Assembly (NCBI GenBank): GCA_026545225.1
Contig: CM048845.1
Location: 76,549,033-76,613,032, forward strand
Direction of reading: 5' to 3'
Source of the DNA: Cornus controversa
Taxonomy: Eukaryota > Streptophyta > Magnoliopsida > Cornales > Cornaceae
Length of the DNA: 64,000 bases
The notes under the pieces were generated by a model. The model was given only the letters and a program-made list of their open reading frames with translations, had not been told where the DNA came from and did no database searches. Within the stretch, counting starts at the first letter, position 1; every line of letters begins with the position of its first letter. Shown in pieces: positions 689-55,765 of this stretch. The position numbers and the translations under genes are program-made.

Positions 689-1692
689 GCAAGCATCATC
701 TTATCTTCAAGAGCCGAACTCTTTGGTGGCATAGGAACTTGTGCTTCATATGGTTGTGGAGGCACATAGTTTTGAGGCTGAAAAGTGGGCTGAATTACTG
801 AAAATGGATTAGAAACTTGACCAGTTGCCATGAGTTGCACCATTCTTTGTGCCACAGTATCCACAATGGTAGACATAGCATCTGTAGAATCAATATCAAA
901 AATATCAGCTATCCTCCTTGTATTGGATGGCCTGCTCGAACAAGATGAAGACACACGTTGTAAAGAATTGTCACTAAGGTTCTCAAACAAAGTCCATGCT
1001 TCATCTTCGCTTTTTAACATGAAAGTACCCCCACATGATGCATCCACCATCTGTTTGTTACTCTCTGTTAGCCCCTCATAGAAACACTGCACTAACTGCC
1101 ACTTTAGAACTTGGTGATGAGGACACTTCCTAAGAAGGTCCTTGAATCTCTCCCATGTCTCATAAAATTGTTTCCCCTCAAATTGAGAGAAACCAGTGAT
1201 AGCACGTCTGAATTGATTGGTCCTCCCTATCGAAAAATATTTCTTTAAGAACTCACTTTGCATTTGAGTCCATGTAGTGATAGAGCATGCCGGTAGAGAT
1301 CTGAACCAATACTTGGCTTTCTCCTTTAGAGAGAATGGAAAGAGTCGCATCCTGAAAGCATCTTCTGAGAAGTTTTGAATTTTTGTTGTTGAGCAAACTT
1401 CTATAAAATCATCTAAGTGCTTGTATGGATCTTCATCAGTCAGCCCAAAGTAGGATGACAACATCTGAATGATACTGGGCTTGATCTCATAGCTCTGTGC
1501 TGTGACATTAGGCAGTTGAAATTCAGCTGGCGAATTATATGTCTCTGGGACATAGTAATCTCTGAGTAATCTTGCTCTTTCCACAACAGCATTAGACACA
1601 GTATTGTTGTCCTCATTATTATCACGCACACCAGCCATGACATTAATAATCTCTTCCTCTTGCTCAATGGTATGGCAATTGAAGTCCCTCAA
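689..1692 (-). pseudogene. gag remnant of an Athila-like Ty3/gypsy element
   Basis: The minus-strand reading frame carries a retrotransposon gag domain: DEDPYKHLDDFIEVC, then the FPFSLKEKAKYWFRSLP block, W..M..EFLKKYF and F..KQFYETWERFKDLLRKCPHH. This is the capsid-like domain of plant Ty3/gypsy elements. It lies directly downstream (minus strand) of a PBS and an LTR, as expected for gag. Pol is not present in the window and the gag is cut short by the LTR at 1-688. It is a fossil fragment, not a host gene. A Pro/Gln-rich tail follows the capsid part. Confidence 0.85.
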
Positions 1693-1902
1693 AAGAAAAC
1701 AAAAATAAAATAATACAAATTAATAGCAAAATAAAAAAATAAAAAAATCTAAAAAAAATAAAAAATAAAAAAAAATAAAACAAATTAGTATCTGAAATAA
1801 AAAAAAACAAAATTAAAAGCAAAATAAAAATAAAAAAAATTTCCTAAACTAAAAATTCAATTAAAATTAATTCTGTACAATCCAATCAATCAAATAGATA
1901 AT

Positions 1903-1919
1903 CCCCGGCAACGGCGCCA
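1903..1919 (-). other. Primer binding site, tRNA-Asp type
   Basis: Read on the minus strand this is TGGCGCCGTTGCCGGGG, complementary to the 3' end of plant tRNA-Asp. It lies five bases beyond the LTR end at 1925 and before gag, which fixes the orientation. tRNA-Asp priming is known for Athila-lineage elements. Confidence 0.85.
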
Positions 1920-1924
1920 AAAAT

Positions 1925-3441
1925 TGATTCGTGTGTGAGTGTGACTCAAAAATATATCAATTAAAAATTTTCACACTTCGCAATAGAATGAATTTCTTGC
2001 AGAATAGGGCTATCGAAAGGGGTATCATACCTCAGGGATTATGGTCTGATGAGTTGGAATACTGAATTAATTCTAATTAAATTTATAAAGAATTCTGATC
2101 TTTAAACTAAAATAATTAAAAAGTAAAATAAAATAAATCAAAGTAAATAAGATAGAAAGTAAGGATAATATGAGAGAAATCTAGGGTGTTTGACTTCACC
2201 ACTAACTCCACAATCAATGGTCAATTGAATCAATTATGGGGAATTACATCATGCATAAGTGGTGTCGGTGGCTACAAGCTCACCTTCATCCGTCAAGAAG
2301 ATAACATATGATTAAGGCTAAGCCATGGACTATCTTCGATTGGCATGGGCCATCTGCCTAACTACTCTAATCTAGGGTGCAGTATGGTTCATCTTCTCTA
2401 GGCATAATCCATCAAAGCTCCTAACAATATATTCAGTGATTACCACTGTGTAATAATCTCTCTCATGATCACAGAAAACAAGAGAGATTGAGTTCAATAA
2501 CAACAACAAAATATCTAAGACAAGATAAGAAATCATTGAAACAAAATTTACAAGACTTTTATTGCTCAATTCTATAATAAGAATCCTCTCAATTACACAA
2601 TCTATGCATGTATATAAAGGTCCCCAATAATTAAAACAATCAAACCATTGATGCTTTGTTAGGCTACATCAAAACCCTAGTGGATGAACTAGCCGCTCAT
2701 GGTAGAAGAAGAAGCTTCAACTGTTGAGGAAAAGACATCATCTTTCTGAATTATGCGTCTGACTTTGTTCTCCAATGGCTCTGCAAATATGTTTCTGTTC
2801 TCTTCTCAGTCCTCTCAGACTCTCCAAGCTCTGTCCACTCTGTCTAATCTCTTCCTATTCAGCCTCCAAGTCTTCACTTTATTCCCCCAAGAGAATACAC
2901 CAAAGTCCTAATCCAATTAGGAATAAATTAGGATTTCCTGCAGCACTAATCAGGTGGGTTTTTCCTGCTGACTTCGGCCCAACTTTTGACCCACTAGAAG
3001 TCCGATTTACGGAATTTTCGTGAAATACAAAAGTGTGCAGAATCAAATTTCGTTTAATCTTATATGAAAATAATGTCGATTTGAGGCTCGAAAATAATAC
3101 TTCTGGTCCGTTTTTTAAAACGGGATTAAGACTGTATTATGCGCAGATTTGGGCTTCAGGCCCGAAACCTTCTTAAGCAGCTGTAATTCTCTTGGACCTC
3201 TTCCTTGGGCTAATTTGAGTTAAAATATATATTTGAATGGATCCCTTTGATGTAGGCTTCATCTAACCATCTTGCATGTCATCTTTAAAAACCCAAAATC
3301 ACGATTTTAACTGAAATAATCATTAAGACCCTGAAAATACAGAAAATACTAAAACAAAGTAAAATAACAAAATAATCTATCACTAAGAGAATAAAATACT
3401 TAAGTTAAGAGACTAGAATGCGTAACATTCAACGCCTATCA
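1925..3441 (-). mobile_element. Complete Athila-like LTR (1517 bp)
   Basis: The boundaries rest on TG..CA ends, the PBS next to one side, and alignment to a second LTR at 20780-22848 that ends at the same bases and is flanked by a 5-bp target duplication. On the minus strand it begins TGATAGGCGTTGAATG and ends CACACACGAATCA. A polypurine-like TAAGTTTAGGGTG precedes it, and a PBS plus gag follows it. So this LTR is both the 3' LTR of one copy and the 5' LTR of another. Fossil. Confidence 0.85.
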
Positions 3442-4125
3442 CACCCTAAACTTACATATTGCTAGTCCCTTAGCAATAGAATAAAACAAAACTAAAACAA
3501 AAGAAACTAACAAATACTAACTAAACTACCCAACTCCACTTTCGTAGGAGAAACGATTGCATTTAGCATATGCAACAAGCCTTTAAACCCCTAGGTTCCC
3601 CCTAGTGGACGAGTATAGTCTCGTGAGGGTTTCCAGAAATGTTATCCACAAACATTCAAAATTCTGTTTCAACATTAATTTAAGAAGAAGATTACAATAT
3701 ATAGTTACAAACTTGCATTCAAGAATAATTCCAAACTTTCAAATTCCACAATTCAAATCAATGGTCCCCATGCATAATTCACATCAACATATCTCAAAAT
3801 AATCAACTCTAGTCTCCTCGTGTAAAGTGAATTAGCAATCATCTCATGTGGCATAACCAAGCTCTGAATATATTAAGGCACATACCCCTTCACTTACTAG
3901 CTCCCCTTATTGAACTCATACTTCCCAACATGCATACATGACTTTTTCATTTTTTTTTCATCATTCTTTTTTTTTTTTCATTGCTTTATTGGTTGTGCAA
4001 TGTCTTGATCTATTAAGCTTTCTGAAAGATCCATGTAGCAAGCTTTCAGTCAGTGGCTCCCAAACCAGATGGCTTTAGGGCACTAGGTTTTAAGATACCC
4101 CGAAGACCTAATTACTCGAATCAGT
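3442..4125 (-). mobile_element. 3' non-coding part of an Athila-like element with polypurine tract
   Basis: On the minus strand this stretch ends in a purine-rich tract (TAAGTTTAGGGTG, 3442-3454) directly before the LTR start, which is where the tract lies in LTR elements. The bases before it (CTAAGGGACTAGCAATATG) resemble the segment preceding the tract in many plant Ty3/gypsy elements. No coding region is recognised. A T-rich run lies at 3948-3980. The stretch stops where a TAT-type LTR begins. Confidence 0.6.
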
Positions 4126-11721: not shown

Positions 11722-11806
11722 CATCGGTATAAATCACAAAACCATCACTGGAATAGTTACCAGGCCTTGGTGTGAAGCATCGGTATAAATCACAAAACCA
11801 TCACTG
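11722..11806. repeat. 29-bp direct repeat at the cut end of the chromovirus
   Basis: 11722-11750 is identical to 11778-11806 (starting CATCGGTATAAATC). The outer copy sits between the retroelement's cut end and the RPA70-like pseudogene. This looks like template-copied filler DNA at a repaired break. Confidence 0.75.
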
Positions 11807-14451
11807 CCACATGGAATAGTTAACACAGGAGCTGATGTTAACTTGTTCTTCAATTCCTCAAAACTTCTTTGACATTCCTCATTCCATACAAATTTTTCTT
11901 CCTTCCGAGTCAACTTCGTTAAGGGTAATGCAATACTAGAAAACCCTTTAATGAATCTTCTGTAATAACCTGCCAAACCAAGAAAACTCCTGACCTCTGT
12001 TACATTAGTTGGTCTTTCCCATTCCACTACTGCTTCTACCTTTGATGGATCAACATAAATACCATCTCCAGATACCACATGCCCCAAGAATACAACTTTA
12101 TCAAGCCAAAATTCACATTTACTGAATTTAGCATAAAGTTGTTTTTCTCGTAAAATCTGTAACACAATCCTCAAATGCTTTTCATGTTCATCCATACTCC
12201 GAGAATATATCAAAATATCATCAATGAAAACAATAACAAATGAATCAACATATGGATGAAATACTCGATTCATTAAATCCATAAACACAGCTGGAGCATT
12301 GGTTAGCCCAAAAGGCATCACCAAAAACTCATAATGGCCATAACGAGTTCGAAAAGCAGTTTTAGAAATATCACTATCTTTTACCTTCAACTGGTGATAT
12401 CCTGACCTCAAGTCAATTTTGGAAAACACTTTTGCTCCTTGCAACTGATCAAATAAATCATCAATTCGTGGTAATGGATACTTGTTTCTAATGGTTACTT
12501 TGTTCAACTGTCGATAATCAATACATAACCGCATAGTACCATCCTTCTTCTTAACAAATAACACTGGCGCCCCCCATGGTGAAATGCTAGGTCGAATGAA
12601 ACCCTTGTCCATTAAATCTTGCAACTGTATTTTCAATTCTTTCAACTCTGTCGGTGCCATTCGGTATGGAGCCATAGAAATTGGAGTTGTTCCCGGTACC
12701 AGCTCAATAGTGAAATCTACCTCTCTGTCCACTGGCAACCCCGGCAATTCTTCTGGAAATACATCTGTGAATTCCCTTACAACTGATACATCTTCTGGTT
12801 TCACATCCTTATATTTAGTACCAATAACATAAGCCAAATAACCCTGGCAACCTTTCTTCAACAACTTCCTAGTTTGTATAGCTGAGATGAGGCAGTTTGA
12901 AATAATATTTCTTTCTCCTACAAATTTAAATTCTGGTTCACCTGGTATTTGAAATACAACTTCTTTCCGAAAACAATCTATGGAAGCATGATACACAGAT
13001 AACCAGTTCATACCCAAAATGATATCAAAGTCTTGCATATTCAACGGTATCAAATTCACCTTTATATTTCCATCTTCCAATTGCAATACACAATCCCGAT
13101 ACTCAACTTCAACCACTACTACCTCACCCATTGGTGTAGAGATAAACAATTTACAATCTAATAATGAAGGTGGTCTACCCAAGTGTATAGCAAATGATGA
13201 TGCAACAAATGAATGCGTTGATCCAGGATCAATAAGAACACCAGCAATTCTACCCAAAATAGAAAGTTTACCTGTCACAACGTCTGGTGTAGCTTGAGCA
13301 TCCTGAAGTGTCATAGCAAACACTCTTCCTTGGGTTCGCAGACCACTAGGAGCACCCCTACCTCCTCTTGATACACCTCCCTGTGGTGATCCTCTGCCCG
13401 GACCACTAACACTTCCCACCGATGTTGTTCCTGTCAACATAGGACACTCCCTTCTTCGATGACCCGGTTGTTGGCAATGATAGCACATTTCTGCTTTCAA
13501 TACAGGACAATCTTTCTTTTGATGACCTTCCTTCTTACAATGAAAACACCCTCTGATATTGCCACTTTCCCCAAAGCTACTTTGTTGAACAAATTGTTGG
13601 CCAGAAAAACCTTGACCTTTTCCAATGCTAGGAGTTCGTCCTTGGAATGCACTGCCTTGTCCTCTACCGTATTGTGATATTTGCCCTCCCTGCCTTGAAG
13701 ATCCTACTTCACTTCCCCTTGACTGTGTTGGATCAAACCTACTTTTCTTGTATCGCTCCCTTCTTCCCTCCAATTCTTTTACATTCTGTTCCGCAATCAT
13801 AGCTTTGTTCACAAGTTCATTATAATTTTTCTCATCAAAAATGGACACTCTTGATTTAATAGCCAGCGCTAAACCATCCTGAAACATCGTACATTTGTCT
13901 TCCTCATTTTGTACAAACTTAGATCCAAACCTTGATAAAGCTGTGAACTTAGCTTCATATTCAGCTACCGTCAGCTTATCTTGTTCTTGATTTAAAAGGA
14001 TGAACTCTCGCTCCTTTCGCTTCCTATAAACTGGAGGAAAATACTTTTCATAAAAAGCTTTAACAAATGGATCCCATAGTATTACCGCTTCTCCTCCTGG
14101 GGCAACCACCAAATGCTTCGTTGAATCCCACCAGTAGCTTGCTTCATCCTTTAGCATAAACGTAGCCAAATTCACTTTCTGGTCCTCTGGTACACTCATT
14201 ACTGCAAAGATAGATTCCATCTTTCTAATCCACCCCTCTGCTTCTGATGGTTGAGTAGTACCTGAGAATACTGGAGGTGATAACTTCATAAACTTTTCAT
14301 GTACTAAACCCATTTTCCTTTCTTGTTGTACCACTTGCCTTGTCTGTGCTATAGTCTGACTTTCATAAAACTTTGTTTGTTGCTCTGCCAACTGTGCTAT
14401 AGCTTGTTGCATTCTCTGCATATCAGTTACTTGTATTGATTCTCTCCCCAC
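11734..14451 (-). pseudogene. gag-protease-reverse transcriptase region of the chromovirus
   Basis: The N-terminal part is a gag domain ([44 protein letters not shown]). Two CCHC zinc knuckles follow ([14 protein letters not shown] and [14 protein letters not shown]). Then comes an aspartic protease with [11 protein letters not shown] and a reverse transcriptase with [28 protein letters not shown] and the catalytic FIDDILIYS. RNase H starts at [11 protein letters not shown] and the element ends there. In an intact relative the polyprotein would go on to RNase H and integrase. It lies antisense to the neighbouring TAT element. It is incomplete. Confidence 0.85.
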
Positions 14452-14722
14452 GTTATCATGAATGTGTTGTTGGACTTCAGTCTCAACTGGAGTATGAGAA
14501 GCTTATGTCTCAACTCTAGGATGTTCATTTCCTCCTTCCATTACTCAATATCTGCGATGAATCTCAGATATAACAACATACATATATGATGTACATTTAC
14601 TACATACTTGTCAGTATCACTCAAGTCAAATAAAGAACTCACTACACACTTCCTACTACCACTGCCAGTCTAGACGCTTACCAACTCCAGAACCTAGAAA
14701 ACCTAGGCTCTGATACCAAAAG

Positions 14723-39284: not shown

Positions 39285-40264
39285 TCATGGACTCCTCATC
39301 ATAGGAATGGCACTAAGTGGGATGGCTTTCTTCAATGTAATCCCGAATTGCTCCTCCATGTCCAAATTCTCCGGCGTAATTCCTCCGGGGAGTTTCCAAT
39401 TGAATTCATGGACAAGAGAAGCTAACATAAGATGAACCATTCGGAATCCCAGAGGCAAACCGGGACAGATACGCCGGCCAGCGCCAAACGGTATGTACTG
39501 AAAATCTTGGCCTTTAAAGTCCATGTTAGAGCCTAAGAACCTCTCTGGTTTATATAACAATGGGTTGTCCCAATACAATTCATCTCTACCAATAGACCAT
39601 GCATTCACTACGACTTGGTTGTTCTTATAAATTGTGAAGTTGCCTATTTCTATGTCATTCCCGGCTTTGTAAGGTAGCAGAAGGGGCGCGGCGGGGTGGA
39701 GTCTCATGGTCTCCTTCACCACAGCTCGGAGGTATGGAAGTTGATCAATGTCCGATTCTTTGACTGACTGGTTTTCACCAATCTTTTCGATGAGTTCATT
39801 CTGTAATTTCTTCATTGTGTCCGGGTTGCGAAGAAGTTCTGCCATTGCCCATTCTGTTGTTATTGAAGATGTATCACTCCCAGCAATAAACAAGTCCTGT
39901 CAATGTATATTGTGACTTCATATAATTAAATTCTTGTCTACATGTATTGTTGAGGTTGATACAATAATATGATCAACAAGAACAAAGAACAATAATATGT
40001 AGTTTGAGAACCTACCAACCAATCACATGTTGACGCAAAATCAAATGTGTCAATTTTATTATGATTGTCGGTATCAATTATTCTCAAAGCGTTACTTTTC
40101 CACGCAAATAATTTTTGTAAATTTTACCGATTAATATACTTGGCTTAATTTTCCGGAAAAAGAAAAAAAAAGGTTCATTTTTGTGTGCTATATTTTCTAT
40201 ACCAAGTGTTAATTAAAGACAAAATGCATGACATCAAGTTATATATATATATATATATATATAG

Positions 40265-40296
<32 letters not shown>

Positions 40297-41231
40297 TACC
40301 GGGAAAAAAAAAAGTTACATAGCAAAAAGAAGTTCATGGTTCTTACCAGGATAAGAGGCTTGATAGTTAGGCTGCTGAAATCTGATTCATCTTTTTCACA
40401 ATGATCAAGAAGAACTTCCAAGAAATCACCACCCACCAAACCCAAAGCCCTCGATTTCAAACGCCGAGCGATGATTTCATCAAAGATCTCATGAAGCCTC
40501 TTATAGGAAGGCTTTATGTGATGCCTAATTCCCTGCAAATCAAACCATTTTAGTACAGGAAAATAGTCGGAAAGATTAGGCTTACCACCATCTTCCATAA
40601 TCCTCCAAACCAAGTCCTTGAACTCCTGAGCTGACTCGAAGTCCGGGTCGATCACATCAACCGAGAGGATGCTGTTCGATATCAAGTTGAGGGTGGTAGC
40701 GAAAGCCACTTGGCCGATATCCACCGGCTTACCGGAATCACAGTGCTTCCGGACATGACCGAGGAGGTCTTCAACTTTCTTGTGGCGGAGGTGTTGCATG
40801 GTGTCTAGTCTCTGGTTGGTGAACAGCTGGGTGGTGCAGACTCTTCGGCGGTTGCGCCACTTGTGGTCGCCGGGGACCCATGCAAGCGTTCCTTCCGGGT
40901 AGGGTTGCGCCGCGATGACATCCGGCACAGGGCGGTCGGAGAAGGTTTTGTCATGTGTTTGGAGGATTTCTTTGGCCAGTTCGGCGGAGGAAGCGACAAT
41001 GGTGGTGACGAAGCCGAAGCGGAGAGTCATGAGAGGGCCGTAGTGTTTGGCCCAGTTGGTGAGTGTCTGGTGTGGTTTCGTCCCGAGTTGGAGGAGGTTA
41101 CCGACGATGGGAAGTCCGATGGGACCGGGTGGTTGTTTGGCGGCAGGAGCTCGCCGGAGCAACCACATTTGGAGGCAGAATAATAATATTACTACTGCGG
41201 TAGTACTGAAGAAGTTGATTTGGAACTCCAT
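39285..41231 (-). CDS. Cytochrome P450, CYP76-like (two exons)
   Basis: The exons are 40347-41231 (295 codons) and 39285-39896 (203 codons plus TGA), joined in phase 0. The donor is CCTG/GTAAGA at 40346 and the acceptor TTGACAG/GACTTG at 39897, giving a 498-residue protein, the normal size for plant A-type P450s. Seen: an N-terminal membrane anchor (residues 10-25), Pro-rich hinge PPGPIGLPIVGN (34-45), helix C WRNRRR (125-130), I-helix AGSDTS (300-305), ExxR ETMR (357-360), PERF (412-415) and heme loop FGAGRRICPG with Cys439. GLPLGFRMVHLMLASLVH after the loop is typical of CYP76. The enzyme would sit on the endoplasmic reticulum and use NADPH-P450 reductase. CYP76 members hydroxylate monoterpenols such as geraniol, diterpenes or other small substrates; the substrate here is unknown. 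The gene looks intact, with one intron at the usual site before the I-helix. Confidence 0.93.
39897..40346 (-). other. P450 intron (450 bp)
   Basis: GT/AG borders as given for the gene. An AT microsatellite occupies about 40240-40292, interrupted by AG at 40261-40264. It splits the coding region just before the oxygen-binding I-helix motif, the common single intron of this P450 clan. Confidence 0.9.
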
Positions 41232-41290
41232 TTGGGTGTTCTCTCGAACAATTCTCCAACTTAATTTGTGAGTTGATAATTACGTAGTGC

Positions 41291-47669: not shown

Positions 47670-48030
47670 GTGATGGGGTGTTTGACTCCAATTATAAAGT
47701 CAGGTGACGTGGGCAATAGTGATTTGTATGACGTGAATGAGAGATATACTTTGTCCAGAACTTTTTTATCTTCAGATAAGTCTCGGAACTGAGGAGTCAG
47801 TTTCTTACTAGGACACGTTTTCATCTGACTGCTATAAATACAGAGTTTTTTACAGCTTTCAAAGCCTTTTCGATAACTGACTTAAAGGTCTCGAATTGGA
47901 TTCTTTCGATTTCTATATCGAAGATATACTTATGAAGTTGTTCCAATTTATTGATTGACATTAACCCTAAATCCCTGCCCCGAGAAATGAATCAATACTT
48001 TCTACTCGAGCTCCATCATGTATTATTTAC
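47670..48030 (+). mobile_element. Probable solo or partial LTR
   Basis: It starts TGATGGGGTGTTTGAC and has TATAAATACAGAG at 47832 followed by CTGACTTAAAGGTCTCGAATTGG. That resembles the start of the transcribed part of many plant Ty3/gypsy LTRs. The right end is not clear, and no PBS was recognised after it. Confidence 0.5.
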
Positions 48031-49120
48031 ATTACACGCAACAAAAAAGAGGGGTTCTAGTGGAACAGAACAAACGATGTCGAGCCAAGAGCACCTTCAT
48101 TCCTATATAAAATGGTGGATGTAATAATTCACAACGGATCGTGTCCTTCAAGTCGCACCCCGTGTCTTTTCGACTACCTTTTATTTTATTTGTCTTTTAT
48201 AGATCGGCATTTCACGATATCAAGAGTGAATCACTTTGGATTTCTAATATTCTATACTGATATTGGTACAATGGAAGTTCTATGGTGGCTGGTTTGACTG
48301 CAAACTATTATTACCGCATGTTAGTTGTACAGCATAGATATATAAATAATAGCTGTCTTTATAGAAGTCTTATGTGAGCTACAAGTAAGGGCCCGTTTGG
48401 CATGTGTTTTGTTTTAGATGTTATGTTTTTAGATAAAACAAAAACAATGTTTTTGTTGTATGGTATTTTGAATTGAAAGCGAAAGTATGTTTGGTGATAA
48501 AATTTCGTTGTAGGAAATACGGAAGTAGAAACATACAAAACACGTTTGGTAATGACAAATATTTTGAAAACAAAATACTTAAAACATGTTTGGTAACTCC
48601 AACTGTTGCCAAAAATATAAGAAGCAAAAACAAAAAACACGTTTGGTACTGAATGTTTCTAATTTGATATTTCATTTTTAAAATTTATTTATATAATTAA
48701 TTATTCATATAATAGACATAAATTTTAGTAGTTGATTGGGAAAATTTGTACACATAATATTTTAGTTTATATAAGTTAAAAAATTTTATATAGATAGAAA
48801 AATAGATAGTACAAGGCGTGATTTTTTTTTTAAAAAAATCCGTAATGTGTTATAATTTATGGCAATTTTTTAATTAATTTTAAATATATGAAAAGCTCAT
48901 AATTTTGTAATGACTTTTAAACATACTCTACACATAATTTTTTTTCATCTTAATCAAACAAAATTTGGTCCTATTTAAGACCAATTTTTAGAATTTTAAA
49001 AATCTCTTGTTTGAATTGTATCAGCTAACTTTGGTAATTTGACAATCATGAAAGTTTGCAACATATGACTCTTGTTGAATTTGTTTAACATGTCTTTAGC
49101 AAAAGTCGATTATGACAACT

Positions 49121-49236
49121 AAAGTAATTGCAGCAATGGAGTATGATCAAACATGGCTATCCACATAGCAATTTGCCTAAAGTAATTGCAGCAATGGAGT
49201 ATGATCAAACATGGCTATCCACATAGCAATTTGCCT
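49121..49236. repeat. Perfect 58-bp tandem duplication
   Basis: 49121-49178 and 49179-49236 are identical (starting AAAGTAATTGCAGCAATGG). The identity implies a very recent origin. Confidence 0.95.
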
Positions 49237-49985
49237 TTCGCTGGCCTTTCAATTAAAGTAGGTGAAATCCATTGCAACAATACTTTTGTTTTGAGAAACA
49301 GAATTGAATGCACTAGGAAAAACCTGCTCTGAGTACAAGGCTTCAAAGCACTACAATTATCCACTATTTCCAAAGGGTTTTTCATGGCTCTAGCAAACTG
49401 CATATAAAAATAGCCACCTTTTTACCTTAAAGTCATCTCTGATTGAAAACTTCTCATAAAACTGCCATCTCTGTTACCCCAACATATGCTGTTAGGAAGG
49501 TAGTATAATTCTTTCAATTTTCTTTTCAGGCAATAAATTTAAGGAAATAAAACCATATAATTTGTTTGTAAATAGCTATAAGATTATCATCAATGCTCTC
49601 CTCGAAGTCAACAAATTAGCTAGCATGCAGTCATACACATTAGAAACTCTACTCAATTGTTAGGAGGAATGCATTTCTGTTATACTATGAATATATGTAC
49701 TCATTGAATTTGGTTGAGTCCAGTAGGAAAGAGAAACATATAAACCATGATCTTTTATACATATCTGCTCAATTTGCTTTATCAATGTGAACCATGTTAG
49801 TTACAACATTTTTTCAAATGCTGGAACTTAGCTTGAGTTGATATATCAAGCACATATAAATAAATAAAGCACCTCTACTGCCTGTTGCTCTACTTTAGAT
49901 ACATATAAATAAACACGTGGGATCTCTCAAACCAAAACAATTTATCATAGAAAAAAGAACGGATATCATAGTTTTTTCTTGTACT

Positions 49986-50147
49986 TTAGAACATAAAGGA
50001 AGCAAGTTCAGACACTTCAGATACAACTTGGGTATAATCTGCCTTTAGTTTTTCTTGTTCCTCTTGGCCTAGTTCCCCCTTGGTTGTCTTGGTTAGCACT
50101 AGAACACAGCACGTCGGCCTCTTGGTTGATCCTACATTTGCAAGATC
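49986..50147 (-). pseudogene. NHP2: Terminal exon of an NHP2-like gene (captured fragment)
   Basis: The minus-strand exon starts after a good acceptor (TTTTCTTCAG/GAT) and reads 53 codons to TAA: DLANVGSTKRPTCCVLVLTKTTKG, then GELGQEEQEKLKADYTQVVSEVSELASFMF. This is the C-terminal part of plant NHP2, the L7Ae-family subunit of H/ACA snoRNPs that guide pseudouridylation of rRNA. The conserved STKRPTCCVLV segment is plain. Earlier exons (L7Ae core with GVPYIYVPSK) were not found in the 4.3 kb upstream. The exon itself has no stop or shift. It lies inside the 6.1-kb element, so a captured copy is more likely than a host gene, unless very long introns hide other exons. Confidence 0.75.
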
Positions 50148-51359
50148 CTGAAGAAAACAGTCCATTATGTTCTCAGCATTAAGATTTATGAGAAATGCAC
50201 CAATACATATATTGTACATATACTATCATTAGTGAGTACGTATTGACTACTAATGCTGGTCACCAATGCATGATTGACTATATAATGAAGCAGATTACTA
50301 TGAAGAACACTTTAACAAAAAAAAAAAACTACAATGTAAATTAAAGAAAATTATAATTATTTTGCTTGAAAAGTCAACCACTTACAAGCATATAGGTTCT
50401 TCAATATTTTTTAAAAATAAGATGCGGCGATGCCCATACAAATGTCACAATCACATTTAAAAAAACAAAAAAAAACCTGATCTAAGTAGGACCAGTTTAC
50501 CACTTTACCTATATCGAAAACTCATAACTTTGAGAAATTTCAAGTATGGGCATAATAAGTAGGCATAATTCCTTTGTACCCAACCTGATCTATTTAATTT
50601 AGTAGCCCTGTGAATATATTTATGTGCATATCCAGTACGCACACTGATGCATACAAAATGATGAGTTAGCTCTTGGCAAAGTTTCACAAGAAATTACATT
50701 GTAATAAATTTTTAGAATCGTTATAATATAAGCGTGACAGATCAATTTAATCCACTAGACCAAAGGAAGGAAAGGCCATGGGTTCTCCATGTCCAGTCCC
50801 CTTGAAAATGCTCAAGTAAATATGCCTCATGAAACCCAATTCAATAAGGGTTCATTAGCTACACCTCATGCAACCAAATCACATGGAACTAGCTGAACAT
50901 GCTAATGAAAACTTTTCAATCCTAATTCCACCCATAAAGATTTCAAATGAAAATTAAAACTATTTCAGTTTGTGCCATGTCGCGTAATCTATTCTATTCT
51001 TCTCTCTGGTTCCTTCCTGTTCGTTATATTCAGATTGCACATGCCTTGTTGCAAGTGGACTGCAGATTGCACCCTCATCTCATGTTCTTTAAATTTTAGG
51101 ATTATGCATGTTTGATTTGAATAAAAAACAATGAAGGATGGTGTAGCAGTAGTTAATGTGCTTCTAGTTTTTGACTTTCAGCAAGGTAAACAAGGTCAGC
51201 AGTTAACAGAGAAGTAATATAACTTCAAATAGATCTAGTTCAGTTGCATATAACAATAACTAAAGAACAATCAAGCAATTACCACATGTTCTGCCAATGT
51301 CAGGATCTCAAATAGATTGAACAATCTTATCAATAATAAGCTTTAGGTGATCAGCTTGA

Positions 51360-51910
51360 GGTGCAACATTAACATTCCAGCAATCTAATAGTTCAAGCAG
51401 CATTAACATTCCAACAAACTAATAGTTCAAGCAGCATTAACAATTCAGCAAACTAATAGTTCAATGAGCAATAACAATTTAGCAAAATAATAGGTTAAGG
51501 AGCAATAACAATCCAAAATTTCAGCATTATAAAATTATGGCAGCAAGCAACATCATAATTTCAGCAATAAGGAATTCAAGGCAGCAATACAGAAATATCA
51601 GCAATTCAATTTTCAGTACAACATGAATTTAAAGGCAGCAACTTTTTGATTTCAGCAAAACAAAATTTCAAGGCAGCAATGCTTATAAACTCAGCAAATC
51701 AACTTCAGCAAAATAGAGTTTAGACAAGGATAATTTCAGCAGTTTAACTTCAGCAACATATAAATTCTGACAGCAATGTTAAATTTCAGCAACATATATA
51801 AAACTGGCAGCAATTTAATGTTTCAGCAACATGAAAATTCTGGCAGCAATGTTAAATTTCAGCAACATATAAATTCTGACAGCAATTTAATGTTTTAGCA
51901 ACATGAAAAT
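51360..51910. repeat. CAGCAA-rich degenerate tandem repeat
   Basis: Units of about 40-60 bp share CAGCAA, TTTCAGCAACAT and AAATTCTGGCAGCAATGTT. The last 200 bases are the most regular. It lies in the 6.1-kb element. Confidence 0.75.
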
Positions 51911-53538
51911 TCTGGCAACAAGATGTATTAGATTTGAGGTATTGGAACTTAAAATGAGAAGCATGCCAGACCTTTACTAAATGCAGCTATAACATGACTT
52001 AACATGTATAATGATATATGCTCAATCCATTAAAACATTATATAGATAACTGCATAATTGACAGGAACATGAGTATATATGACAGCAACAATAACAACTC
52101 TAAATCAGAATTTTAGTACATCAATTTTGGGAAAATTGCTTGCATTCACAGAAGTAACACAAATTTGAGTTGATTAAACTTAAAATGATATGCTCAAACA
52201 CAATGGAGCTCTATTAATTAACCAAAGAATCATTTTATGTTAGCTTTAAGGGTCAGATTCACATAAACCCTTGAATATAACTTGTATTGTCAAAACACAG
52301 CTTGCAAAAGAAAAAAACATAAATTGGGTCCAAGAGGTAGATTATTATATACTAGTATAGTTAAGGAACACATAATTTTTTTTTTCCATGGGCACAGGTT
52401 AATCGTGACCTTTATCTTTTTAAAAACTAAAAAGTAATTTAGACCAAAAGTTCCTGTCACATGAAGTAGCAGTTTTCAGTTTCTAATTCTTACTTTTTTT
52501 TCATGCTTTTCTTCCAAATAGCTTTGCCCTAAACCTTTTCCTGGTACTCATTTCCATGTTTATGGTGCCCTTGTGTCAGCACATTCTAGACAAACTATAT
52601 TTTTTTCAGCCTTCTGTTAAGTGTGAAACAACTAGTCACTTGTAAAAGTTGTGAGAAAAGCATCCAAACACTTAATTAGGTCTATTTGACCAATAAGGTA
52701 CTGCTAGACTACACTTTTTTACTCTGAAATTTTTTAGATACATTTAATTTAGTACTGTAAGAACTAAGAATGATTCTTGTTTACATATAACCAAAAAAAA
52801 AAAAAGGAAGAGAAATTCAAAATATTATTTGGGTAATAGTTTTTTGAAAATTGTTATAAAAAATTCTGTCATTTCAAATCACATTTTTTTTATTGGTTTA
52901 TTTATTTTTGAGAAAATTTAAAAACATATATAATAATTTGAAAATTCTTTTAAAAATTCCTAAAACAGAGTGTTAAAAAAAATATTCAATTTGAGAAAAT
53001 ACTGTTTTAAGAGAATGGAACCAAATGACTCTTATTAGTACATGAACACAAGTTTGTTCAATTCCTTTTAACAAATCAAGATCAGCTTATCATTAGAAAC
53101 CGTTTCTTCACTAATAAACCACCAACAACCAATATTCTCTCCAAGTCCAAGTAGGGGACACCAATAGGTAGGCAAACAATTATTAATGTAAAGGTTAAAT
53201 ACTTGAATTAATTTCTTTGTATGGACTATGGGCTACTGGTTTCATCACCACATGAAGCCTAAAAGGCTATAAATATGATTCAACATGCTCAAATGATGCA
53301 CTTTATATGCTATGGACTCTCAAGTATGTTAATATTTTATTGGTAAATAATTTTTAGTATGTTATTTCCAAATCAACGACAATAAAAGAAGACAAATAAA
53401 TTTCAATTAAATTTTTTGATCATGAAAAAAAATTGTTCTACCTTACATAGCCTGTCCAAAATTAAATTGGAGCACATTAGAGAATAAATAACATAAGTTC
53501 AGTAATCAAATATACCATTCAAGAAATCAACAAGTATC

Positions 53539-53795
53539 AATGTTTCAACAAATCATCATTGAGCAAGTAATATTGAACGACATCCATATATATATAGACA
53601 AATACATATATATACACACACATATATGTAAACAAACGCTGGAGCAAGAGAAAGGAGAGAGAAGAAAACTAAGTTTCAACAAATCATCATTGAGCATGAA
53701 ATATTGAACAAACCCATATATACACAGAAAAATATATATACATCTATGTACATATACATAAACAAACACTAGAGCAAGAGAAAGGAGAGATAACA
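53539..53795. repeat. Tandem duplication of about 133 bp
   Basis: Both copies hold TTTCAACAAATCATCATTGA, a TATA/CATA-rich part and AGAGCAAGAGAAAGGAGAGA. Confidence 0.85.
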
Positions 53796-53805
53796 GAGCG
53801 TATGC

Positions 53806-54175
53806 TTACAGTCGAGCCTGGTCTACTTCAAAGATTTGAGTCTGAAATACCTCGATTTGTCCTCCTTCAACACAAAAATTTCATTTTCAGAATGAAATTA
53901 TAGATAGTCGAACACGAAGAAGTGAAATCGAATAGTGATGAGAGAGAAAGGAGAGAGAACATAACATTTTTCCAAGATTTGCGTCTGAAACGCCTCGATT
54001 GGTCGTCCTTCAACACAAAACTACAGAACCGCCTTCAAAATTAGTTTCAAAGAGAATCGAACATAGAAGTGAAGTCGAATAGAGATGAGCAACACTCAAA
54101 AACATAACGTATTTTCAAGATTTGCGTCTCAAAAATGCCTCCATCAGTCGTTTTCTAACACAAAACTTGGATTTT
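53806..54175. repeat. Three tandem units of about 125-150 bp
   Basis: Each unit has AAGATTTG(C/A)GTCT, CCTCGATT.GTC.TCCTTC (weaker in the third) and AACACAAAA. They lie in the right subterminal part of the 6.1-kb element. Confidence 0.75.
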
Positions 54176-54666
54176 CTAGAGTCTCCGAACAGCAGCAAAA
54201 CCCTAAAAAATGGATATATACCTGTGTTGCGATTGGGCCATTTGCTTCCTCCGCTACAGTGGTTTGGGCCAATTTGATTTCGGTTGATTCTAGCGCTACA
54301 GTAATGAAACACCCAAAAACACCAATTAGTTGTTTTGGGTTTGTGCTTCTTTTATCAAAATGTTATAGTACTGTGCAAAACGTAACAAGCCTCTACCAAA
54401 CATGCTTTGGGCCTCAAACTGAGTACTGTAACGGACCTGCAACAGAAACACCCAAAACAAAACATATACCAAACAGGCCCTAAGTGTTAGATAGCATATA
54501 TTTATAGTTGTTAATGGTCTTAGCAAGATACGTGGGAACTCTTATGCTATCAAAATTTCGTATCTAAAAATGGTGAAAACCGTGGATTCCTCAATTTTAT
54601 ACTAAAGTACTAATTATACAACTTAAAATTTATGTGGCATGACTGAAATGGGAAAGGTTATGCCTT

Positions 54667-54934
54667 ATATGAATGCTAGGAAAATGGGCTTGACATTGCT
54701 TTGGCCAGAACTCGGTTGCTTGCTTGCTTCCAAGAGAGACTCCGGCAAGGAATTGGGATAGATATGGGCTGAGAAAGTGAAGTTTATGATTTATAAATTT
54801 ATATGAATGCTATGAAAATGGGTTTGACATTGCTCTGGCCAGAAAGCCACTGCTTGCTTCCAAGAGAGACTACGGCAAGAGTTGGGGATGGATATTTGCT
54901 GAGAAAGTGAAGTTTATGATTTATAATTGTATAT
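54667..54934. repeat. 134-bp tandem duplication
   Basis: Copies begin ATATGAATGCTAGGAAAATG at 54667 and ATATGAATGCTATGAAAATG at 54801. Both contain CTTGCTTCCAAGAGAGACT and end GTGAAGTTTATGATTTATAA. Confidence 0.9.
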
Positions 54935-55179
54935 GAATGAGAGGAATATGGGCTTGGGTTGTTTTATTTTTGGAACGACTGATCCTTACATTTATATGAA
55001 TTTTATTGGGTTGAGCTAAAATGACCTTTTTATCCTTAAGTTAATATAAAGAAGAATGAGCTTATTATATACACACGTGTTTGTAAATTATATAAATATA
55101 GCCATCATACGGAGTTGAGAGTGCAACAATATGCCGGTGAATGTTGATATTATGATCACACGTCATTATAACATTAGTC

Positions 55180-55765
55180 TTTACTCAAATTAGGAGTGAC
55201 AATATTTGACATGACACGTTAATATGATTTGAACACGACACGAAATAAGTGAATTTAAATTTAACTTAATTGTGTTTAATTGACATGGTAATTAAACGTG
55301 TCATGTTTATCTCCACTCACAAGACACATAATAAGTGAGTCTGAGTTTGGTTTAATTGTATCCGTGTCGACTAAATTGACACAGTAAAACTAAACCTATT
55401 TCGTTAGATTTTGACCTATTTATTAAATTAATTATACGTGTCTTATCAACCATGTAATAATGATGTGATGTTAAGCATGTAATAATAATGTCATCTTCAT
55501 GTCAATAACGTTGGCATAAAATTTGCGTCGATCCATAAAATACAATATTCGCATCATTACAAGACACGTCAAAACAAATATACACAAGACATGCTAACAT
55601 CAACGCACTCTAAATCATTCTCCTAAGAATTTAAATCAAACAATTTTGTTATGACACGTCAACATGAACTTACACAAAATGACACCCCAACACAATGTAG
55701 TCTAAATCATTTTCCTAGGAATTTAAATCAAACCATTTAACGAAATTGTTCACAAATAAGCCCTT
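55180..55765. repeat. Degenerate dispersed repeat rich in GACACG words
   Basis: Words such as GACACGTTAATATGA, AACACGACACG, AATTGACA and GACACGTCAA recur. Two direct copies around AATCATT(C/T)TCCTA(A/G)GAATTTA lie about 100 bp apart (55612 and 55706). This looks like an old multicopy repeat. No coding part. Confidence 0.5.

What the first reader, a model, noticed from the sequence alone, without database searches (positions are those of the whole stretch)
48389..54480. 6.1-kb PIF-like element holding an intact NHP2 terminal exon
Matching inverted ends about 28 bp long, with TAA on both sides, enclose 6.1 kb that has no visible transposase. The interior contains a clean minus-strand last exon of a conserved snoRNP gene with its splice acceptor. 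Gene capture is well known for Mutator-like and Helitron elements and less described for PIF-type ends at this size. If real, it is an exon-shuffling vehicle, since the exon is complete with acceptor and stop.
Basis: partly seen in the sequence, partly recalled or inferred. Interest (0 to 1): 0.72.

Follow-up and report, generated by a model that had tools for sequence, protein, structure and literature searches.

The report
Jumping gene carrying a copied exon
A plant DNA transposon of the PIF/Harbinger kind has copied the last exon of a housekeeping gene and carried it to a new place; this kind of gene capture is already known, and the copied exon shows no sign of being used.

Summary
Window 48389-54480 is one 6,092-bp element with imperfect 28-bp inverted ends (24 of 28 match) between TAA flanks. 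Two capped lists of 41 end matches give 15 facing pairs, 3-23 kb apart. Of 14 elements read, 13 have identical TAA, TTA or ATA flanks. Eight of 14 hold DDE_Tnp_4 and Myb/SANT stretches, so the family is PIF/Harbinger; the window copy has neither. Paralogous sites lacking the 6.1 kb exist, 4 bp short of a clean one-TAA site.

The NHP2 exon comes from a normal NHP2 gene 25 Mb away on the same contig. It differs from its parent as much as its flanks do (93.2% against 93.2-93.6%), and the sister copy's exon has two in-frame stops: drifting passenger DNA, though 162 bases give little power.

Other members hold carboxylesterase, cullin and choline-kinase fragments. Gene capture by PIF elements is in print for grapevine (2008) and for maize and rice (2022). 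Verdict: a well-documented new member of a known kind.

The parts
48386..48388 (.). left target-site duplication TAA
   Evidence: 13 of 14 elements read have identical TAA/TTA/ATA flanks (by eye)
48389..48416 (+). left terminal inverted repeat, 28 bp, 24 of 28 matching the right one
48389..48830 (+). left end region: about the first 320 bp or more shared with all 13 fetched elements, up to 48830 with E7 and E9
   Evidence: 41 listed genome hits to the first 212 bp at 75-100%, own copy included
49119..49234 (.). exact 58-bp tandem duplication at the left edge of the captured region; sister E1 aligns as a single copy
49199..50475 (-). captured NHP2 stretch: 3' flank, terminal exon and intron. 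Parent C1:101726070-101727067. Window 49404-49669 (266 bp) has no match in the parent
   Evidence: (88-92% identity)
49986..50147 (-). intact NHP2 terminal exon, 53 codons plus stop; acceptor CTTCAG just upstream (50148-50153)
50489..50651 (+). 163-bp fragment 96% identical to C8:58765519-58765681, about 370 bp from an EST1_DNA_bind (SMG7/EST1-like) ORF, probably intron
50649..51123 (+). fragment 91-95% identical to two blocks of C6:49253592-49254534, lacking the 454 bp between them; no GT-AG at that junction
51124..52345 (+). repetitive stretch (CAGCAA-rich in part), parts of it shared with many genome places
52346..54480 (+). right end region: shared from 52346 with E1 and six others (E3, E4, E6-E9); the last 270 bp or so with all 13 fetched elements
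54453..54480 (-). right terminal inverted repeat, 28 bp
54481..54483 (.). right target-site duplication TAA

Best explanation
The 6.1 kb is a non-autonomous gene-carrying ('Pack'-type) member of a PIF/Harbinger family whose read members are 3-13 kb long. An ancestor copied genomic DNA from the 3' end of the genome's one full NHP2 gene: terminal exon, part of the last intron and 3' flank. The copy then spread by transposition. A derivative without transposase genes also contains short fragments from two other loci, and it was moved to this place by a relative's transposase. Shown: unit boundaries and TSD, family membership, parent gene, sister copy, paralogous sites without the insert, absence of transposase, equal divergence of exon and flanks. 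Inferred: that NHP2 was captured once; that the fragments came in by template switching during gap repair (they come from three contigs and overlap by 2-3 bp at two junctions); mobilisation in trans; absence of function.
For: Paired ends: 15 facing pairs from 41 and 41 listed hits. TSD identical in 13 of 14. DDE_Tnp_4 and Myb_DNA-bind_3 in E6 ORFs, homologous stretches in 8 of 14 elements. Parent gene with its other exons at C1:101.726-101.729 Mb, the only place among 16 matches of its 3.1-kb locus that is full length. Sister E1, 94-96% identical over most of its length, 85% over the last 0.8 kb. Site pattern over 708 ungapped columns of the NHP2 stretch: 21 where W, E1 and C9 agree against the parent, 14 where W and E1 agree against C9 and parent, 7 conflicting; an 8-bp block and much of the 266 bp are present in W, E1 and C9 and absent from the parent. 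Sites without the insert at C3:47.704, C3:47.728 and C7:14.753 Mb. Mosaic fragments from C8 and C6.
Against: The sites without the insert are paralogous and short (73, 73 and 265 aligned bases), and each lacks 4 bp at the junction, so no exact one-TAA site was seen. The site-pattern support for one capture is modest, and changes in the parent after capture would look the same; a first count of 101 was inflated by misaligned columns and is withdrawn. The C9 copy's own ends were not found. The C6 and C8 loci are taken as donors because a 163-bp or 475-bp piece without TIRs is hard to explain the other way round; this is inference.
Confidence: 0.94

Rival explanations
1. Two separate short MITE-like elements flank an ordinary NHP2 gene fragment, and the apparent 6.1-kb element is coincidence.
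For: 26 of the 41 listed left-end matches have no facing right-end match within 25 kb in the other list, so short or solo ends may exist; both lists are capped.
Against: 15 facing pairs, matching TSDs in 13 of 14, a 94-96% identical sister with the same interior at another locus, and sites lacking this unit.
Confidence: 0.02
2. The captured exon has a function: it is spliced into host or transposase transcripts, supplying a new C-terminus or a 3' end (exon shuffling).
For: Acceptor, frame and stop are intact in the window copy, and the exon has the same strand as the family's transposase stretches.
Against: Exon, intron and 3' flank diverge equally from the parent (151/162 = 93.2%, 305/326 = 93.6%, 287/308 = 93.2%); the sister E1 exon has two in-frame stops; no transposase gene is left in the window element. 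No expression data.
Confidence: 0.04
3. The NHP2 piece came in as an ordinary duplication or retrocopy, and a transposon later inserted around or next to it.
For: NHP2 3'-end sequence exists at eight places besides the parent, the window included.
Against: Intron sequence is retained, so it is not a retrocopy. Five of the eight places were read: four are elements with both ends (W, E1, E7, E9) and one (C9) lies beside family-like sequence. Two of the three unread C7 places lie 4-5 kb from a left-end hit on the same strand.
Confidence: 0.02

Closest known systems
Pifvine-3 PIF elements of grapevine (Benjak et al. 2008, author name recalled; PMC2528002; passages read)
   Same: PIF elements with TAA/TTA TSDs, transposase plus second ORF, and a long extra region holding transduplicated host introns and exons, in some cases shared by several copies.
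   Different: This window copy has lost its transposase; the host here is unnamed, and no sequence comparison with Pifvine-3 was made.
Pack-PIF elements of maize and rice (Gisby and Catoni 2022, PMC8903248; passages read)
   Same: Non-autonomous PIF elements with captured coding DNA; the paper reports one maize element supplying an exon to a gene.
   Different: In the maize cluster shown, the gene-carrying group averages 535 bp with a 163-bp capture; here 6.1 kb with about 1.3 kb of NHP2-derived DNA plus pieces from two other loci, in a family with transposase-bearing members.
Pack-MULEs, Pack-CACTA, Helitrons (recalled, and named in the papers above)
   Same: Capture and spread of host gene fragments.
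   Different: Other superfamilies: different TSD length, ends and enzymes (recalled).

Membership tests
PIF/Harbinger superfamily | 3-bp TWA-type target-site duplication | tested here: met
   TAA in the window; 13 of 14 identical trinucleotides: TAA 4, TTA 7, ATA 2; the misfit E12 is TAA/TAG. Read by eye; one search's script misplaced the right anchor of E3 and E4 and the left anchor of E4
PIF/Harbinger superfamily | terminal inverted repeats of the GGG...GTTTGG type (type recalled), shared across the family | tested here: met
   24 of 28 in the window copy
PIF/Harbinger superfamily | family encodes a DDE transposase (DDE_Tnp_4) and a Myb/SANT protein | tested here: met
   Pfam E 3.1e-8 and 8.7e-14 (DDE_Tnp_4, two pieces) and 1e-16 (Myb_DNA-bind_3), ORFs of E6; homologous stretches in 8 of 14 elements, not in the window copy. 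Intactness not tested
Pack-TYPE elements | captured host coding DNA between TIRs, with an identifiable parent | tested here: met
Pack-TYPE elements | no transposase in the element | tested here: met
   no DDE or Myb match in the window copy at E 1e-3
Pack-TYPE elements | mobilised as a unit | tested here: met
   sister E1 on C5; paralogous sites lacking the unit
expressed exon-shuffling element | exon under selection or spliced into transcripts | tested here: inconclusive
   equal divergence of exon and flanks and a sister with two stops speak against selection; transcripts not testable here

The most novel reading that the evidence does not exclude
This PIF family has a standing cargo region downstream of its transposase gene, where host gene fragments are loaded repeatedly and in the transposase's own sense. 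NHP2, carboxylesterase, cullin, choline kinase and, weakly, glutathione peroxidase are 5 of 5 on the transposase's strand; the C8 piece in the window, antisense to its gene's strand there, makes it 5 of 6. Captured exons and gene 3' ends might then be spliced to transposase transcripts or end them.
Probability: 0.1. Interest if true: 0.6.

Novelty: new member of a known kind. Interest (0 to 1): 0.3.

Why it matters
It is a fully worked case of PIF/Harbinger gene capture: parent gene, sister copy, paralogous sites without the insert, transposase-bearing relatives, and a sign that the cargo is drifting. The family also offers a way to test how PIF elements acquire cargo, because several different gene fragments sit in comparable places within elements that still carry transposase stretches.

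Tried and rejected
Chance inverted repeat: rejected. Normal NHP2 gene in the window: rejected, only one exon found. Retrocopy: rejected for NHP2, since intron is retained; for the C6 piece, the missing 454 bp has no GT-AG borders. A base-precise cargo boundary shared by the members: looked for and not found; a short motif next to the cargo is shared by W, E1, E7 and E9, while the other boundaries printed differ. Ends of the C9 NHP2-bearing copy: not found in the 6 kb read. LTRs of the 4.6-kb insertion in E1: not found by self-BLAST; the insertion is called Copia-like by eye from its ORFs, without a Pfam run. Parents of the carboxylesterase, cullin and choline-kinase fragments: not found, because (carboxylesterase) did not complete and the other two were not searched. 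A first site-pattern count (101 against 16) and the downstream identity (361/472) ran into misaligned columns beside the 266-bp block; both are replaced, limited to window 49670-50475. The W-C9 intron figure there (192/240) is also lowered by a C9 deletion.

Full report
What was checked. Reading 47800-55200 directly gives TAA at 48386-48388, GGGCCCGTTTGG... from 48389...CCAAACAGGCCC up to 54480, and TAA at 54481-54483. The two 28-bp ends match at 24 positions. Among 196,882 random pairs of 31-mers from the window, one matched as well as the two ends with flanks.

The family. The left 212 bp has 41 listed matches in the window's own genome and the right 251 bp also 41, own copies included. Both lists are capped, so they are lower bounds. 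Computing on the two lists gives 15 left/right pairs in facing order within 25 kb, the window included, and one non-facing neighbour; 26 of the 41 left ends have no such partner in the list. I fetched 13 of the other 14 pairs; the 22.8-kb pair on C1:18.4 Mb was left out. Of the 14 elements read, 13 have identical trinucleotide flanks: TAA in 4, TTA in 7, ATA in 2. E12 has TAA/TAG (read by eye; the script placed anchors wrongly for E3 and E4).

Transposase. ORFs of member E6 match DDE_Tnp_4 (3.1e-8 and 8.7e-14, two pieces) and Myb_DNA-bind_3 (1e-16). Homologous stretches are present in 8 of 14 elements (E2, E4, E6, E7, E8, E9, E12, E13), on the minus strand in each, and were not found in 6, including the window copy and its sister E1. 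I did not test whether any member has intact, active transposase genes.

The NHP2 piece. The minus-strand exon 49986-50147 encodes DLANVGSTKRPTCCVLVLTKTTKGELGQEEQEKLKADYTQVVSEVSELASFMF and a stop, with CTTCAG before it. tblastn of NHP2 finds only this exon in the window. The parent lies at C1:101.726-101.729 Mb; three tblastn blocks there cover the 157-aa protein that I joined by hand from its ORFs, and that protein matches Ribosomal_L7Ae at 5.6e-25. Window 49199-50475 corresponds to parent 101726070-101727067. Window 49404-49669 (266 bp) has no match in the parent. A search with the parent's 3.1-kb locus lists 16 matches: itself; eight places with NHP2 3'-end sequence (window, C5, C9 in three rows, two on C2, three on C7); and five short matches of 30-73 bp to other parts of the query, which I set aside.

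Descent. The sister element E1 on C5 is 94-96% identical over most of the window element, dropping to 85% over the last 0.8 kb, and holds an extra 4.6 kb with retrotransposon-like ORFs. Over 708 ungapped columns of window 49670-50475, 21 separate W, E1 and C9 from the parent, 14 unite W and E1 against C9 and the parent, and 7 conflict. W, E1 and C9 also share an 8-bp block and much of the 266-bp block that the parent lacks. This fits one capture followed by spread, but modestly, since changes in the parent would leave the same pattern. E7 and E9, which carry transposase stretches, keep a 142-bp NHP2 remnant 96% identical to the window copy.

Mosaic. Between the NHP2 piece and the right end region lie 163 bp matching C8, about 370 bp from an EST1_DNA_bind ORF, and 475 bp matching C6 in two blocks. 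The pieces come from different contigs and overlap by 2-3 bp at two junctions (BLAST ends, so approximate). I take this as a sign of template switching during gap repair rather than of fusion of neighbouring elements, which would take in one contiguous stretch. This is inference.

Site without the insert. The left flank has 19 listed matches and the right flank 6, own copies included. At C3:47.704, C3:47.728 and C7:14.753 Mb the two flanks are continuous without the 6.1 kb, over 265, 73 and 73 aligned bases. These are paralogues, and each lacks 4 bp at the junction compared with the one-TAA form, so the exact pre-insertion sequence is not shown. A fourth locus, C3:21.679 Mb, matches the left flank up to the base before TAA and then differs. 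A further right-flank match at C7:14.710 Mb was not fetched.

Is the exon used? Window against parent: exon 151/162 (93.2%), intron 305/326 (93.6%), 3' flank 287/308 (93.2%). The sister's exon has two in-frame stops. With 162 bases the power is low, but nothing points to selection. Expression cannot be tested here.

Other cargo in the family. E7 and E9 share carboxylesterase-like (Abhydrolase_3, 5.7e-10 and 3.5e-10) and cullin (7e-11; 6.7e-7, below cut-off) fragments. E6 has three choline-kinase stretches in order (1.6e-13, 7.4e-11; 3.3e-5, below cut-off). E13 has a weak glutathione-peroxidase match (4.3e-4, below cut-off). Three of the ten peptides had no match, and the cargo regions of E4, E10, E11 and E12 were not scanned. 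The matched cargo lies on the minus strand, like the transposase stretches. Five of five in sense is suggestive at most, since candidates were picked by eye; the C8 piece in the window is a counter-example if counted.

What is known. In grapevine, PIF elements of family Pifvine-3 often hold long regions with high identity to host introns and exons (PMC2528002, passages). Pack-PIF elements are described in maize and rice (PMC8903248, passages). A 2026 review of gene capture (PMC13317346, passages) discusses Pack-type elements. One search found no paper with at least three of the terms PIF-like, transposon, NHP2 and captured exon; another found only PMC8903248 for Pack-PIF, Pack-Harbinger or Pack-PHIS. 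The library holds open-licence papers only.

Verdict. The feature is real and well supported: a non-autonomous, gene-carrying PIF/Harbinger element. It is a new member of a known kind. That the host is a plant is inferred from the gene and repeat content; no call names it.

Noticed in passing
family members E2, E3, E6, E7/E9, E12, E13 (L051, L052, L056/L057, L058/L059, L062/L063, L066/L067, L068), left third of each element: A 2-3 kb stretch between the left end and the transposase region is shared with no or one other of the 14 elements compared: a variable cargo region. E3, E10, E12 and E13 have further unshared stretches, and part of E13's recurs beside the C9 NHP2 copy.
   Followed up: partly
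element coordinates: E7/E9 (L058, L062) 1454-3095; E6 (L056/L057, reversed) 2218-4111; E13 (L068) 2127-2333: Carboxylesterase, cullin, choline-kinase and weak glutathione-peroxidase fragments, on the same strand as the transposase stretches.
   Followed up: partly
L049 2292-6917: Sister element E1 holds a 4.6-kb insertion with retrotransposon-like ORFs interrupted by stops; no LTRs found by self-BLAST.
   Followed up: partly
C3:47704478-47704584, C3:47728349-47728417, C7:14753295-14753363 (L075-L077): The insertion lies in a sequence that recurs a few times in the genome; what that sequence is was not worked out.
   Followed up: no
window 39285-41279, minus: Cytochrome P450 gene in two ORF pieces; the 39285-39899 piece matches Pfam p450 at 6.1e-64, the other was not scanned.
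   Followed up: no
window 11734-14502, minus: 922-aa ORF that looks like a retrotransposon gag-pol (named by eye).
   Followed up: no
window 54665-54956: Tandem duplication with about 130-bp spacing just right of the element.
   Followed up: no
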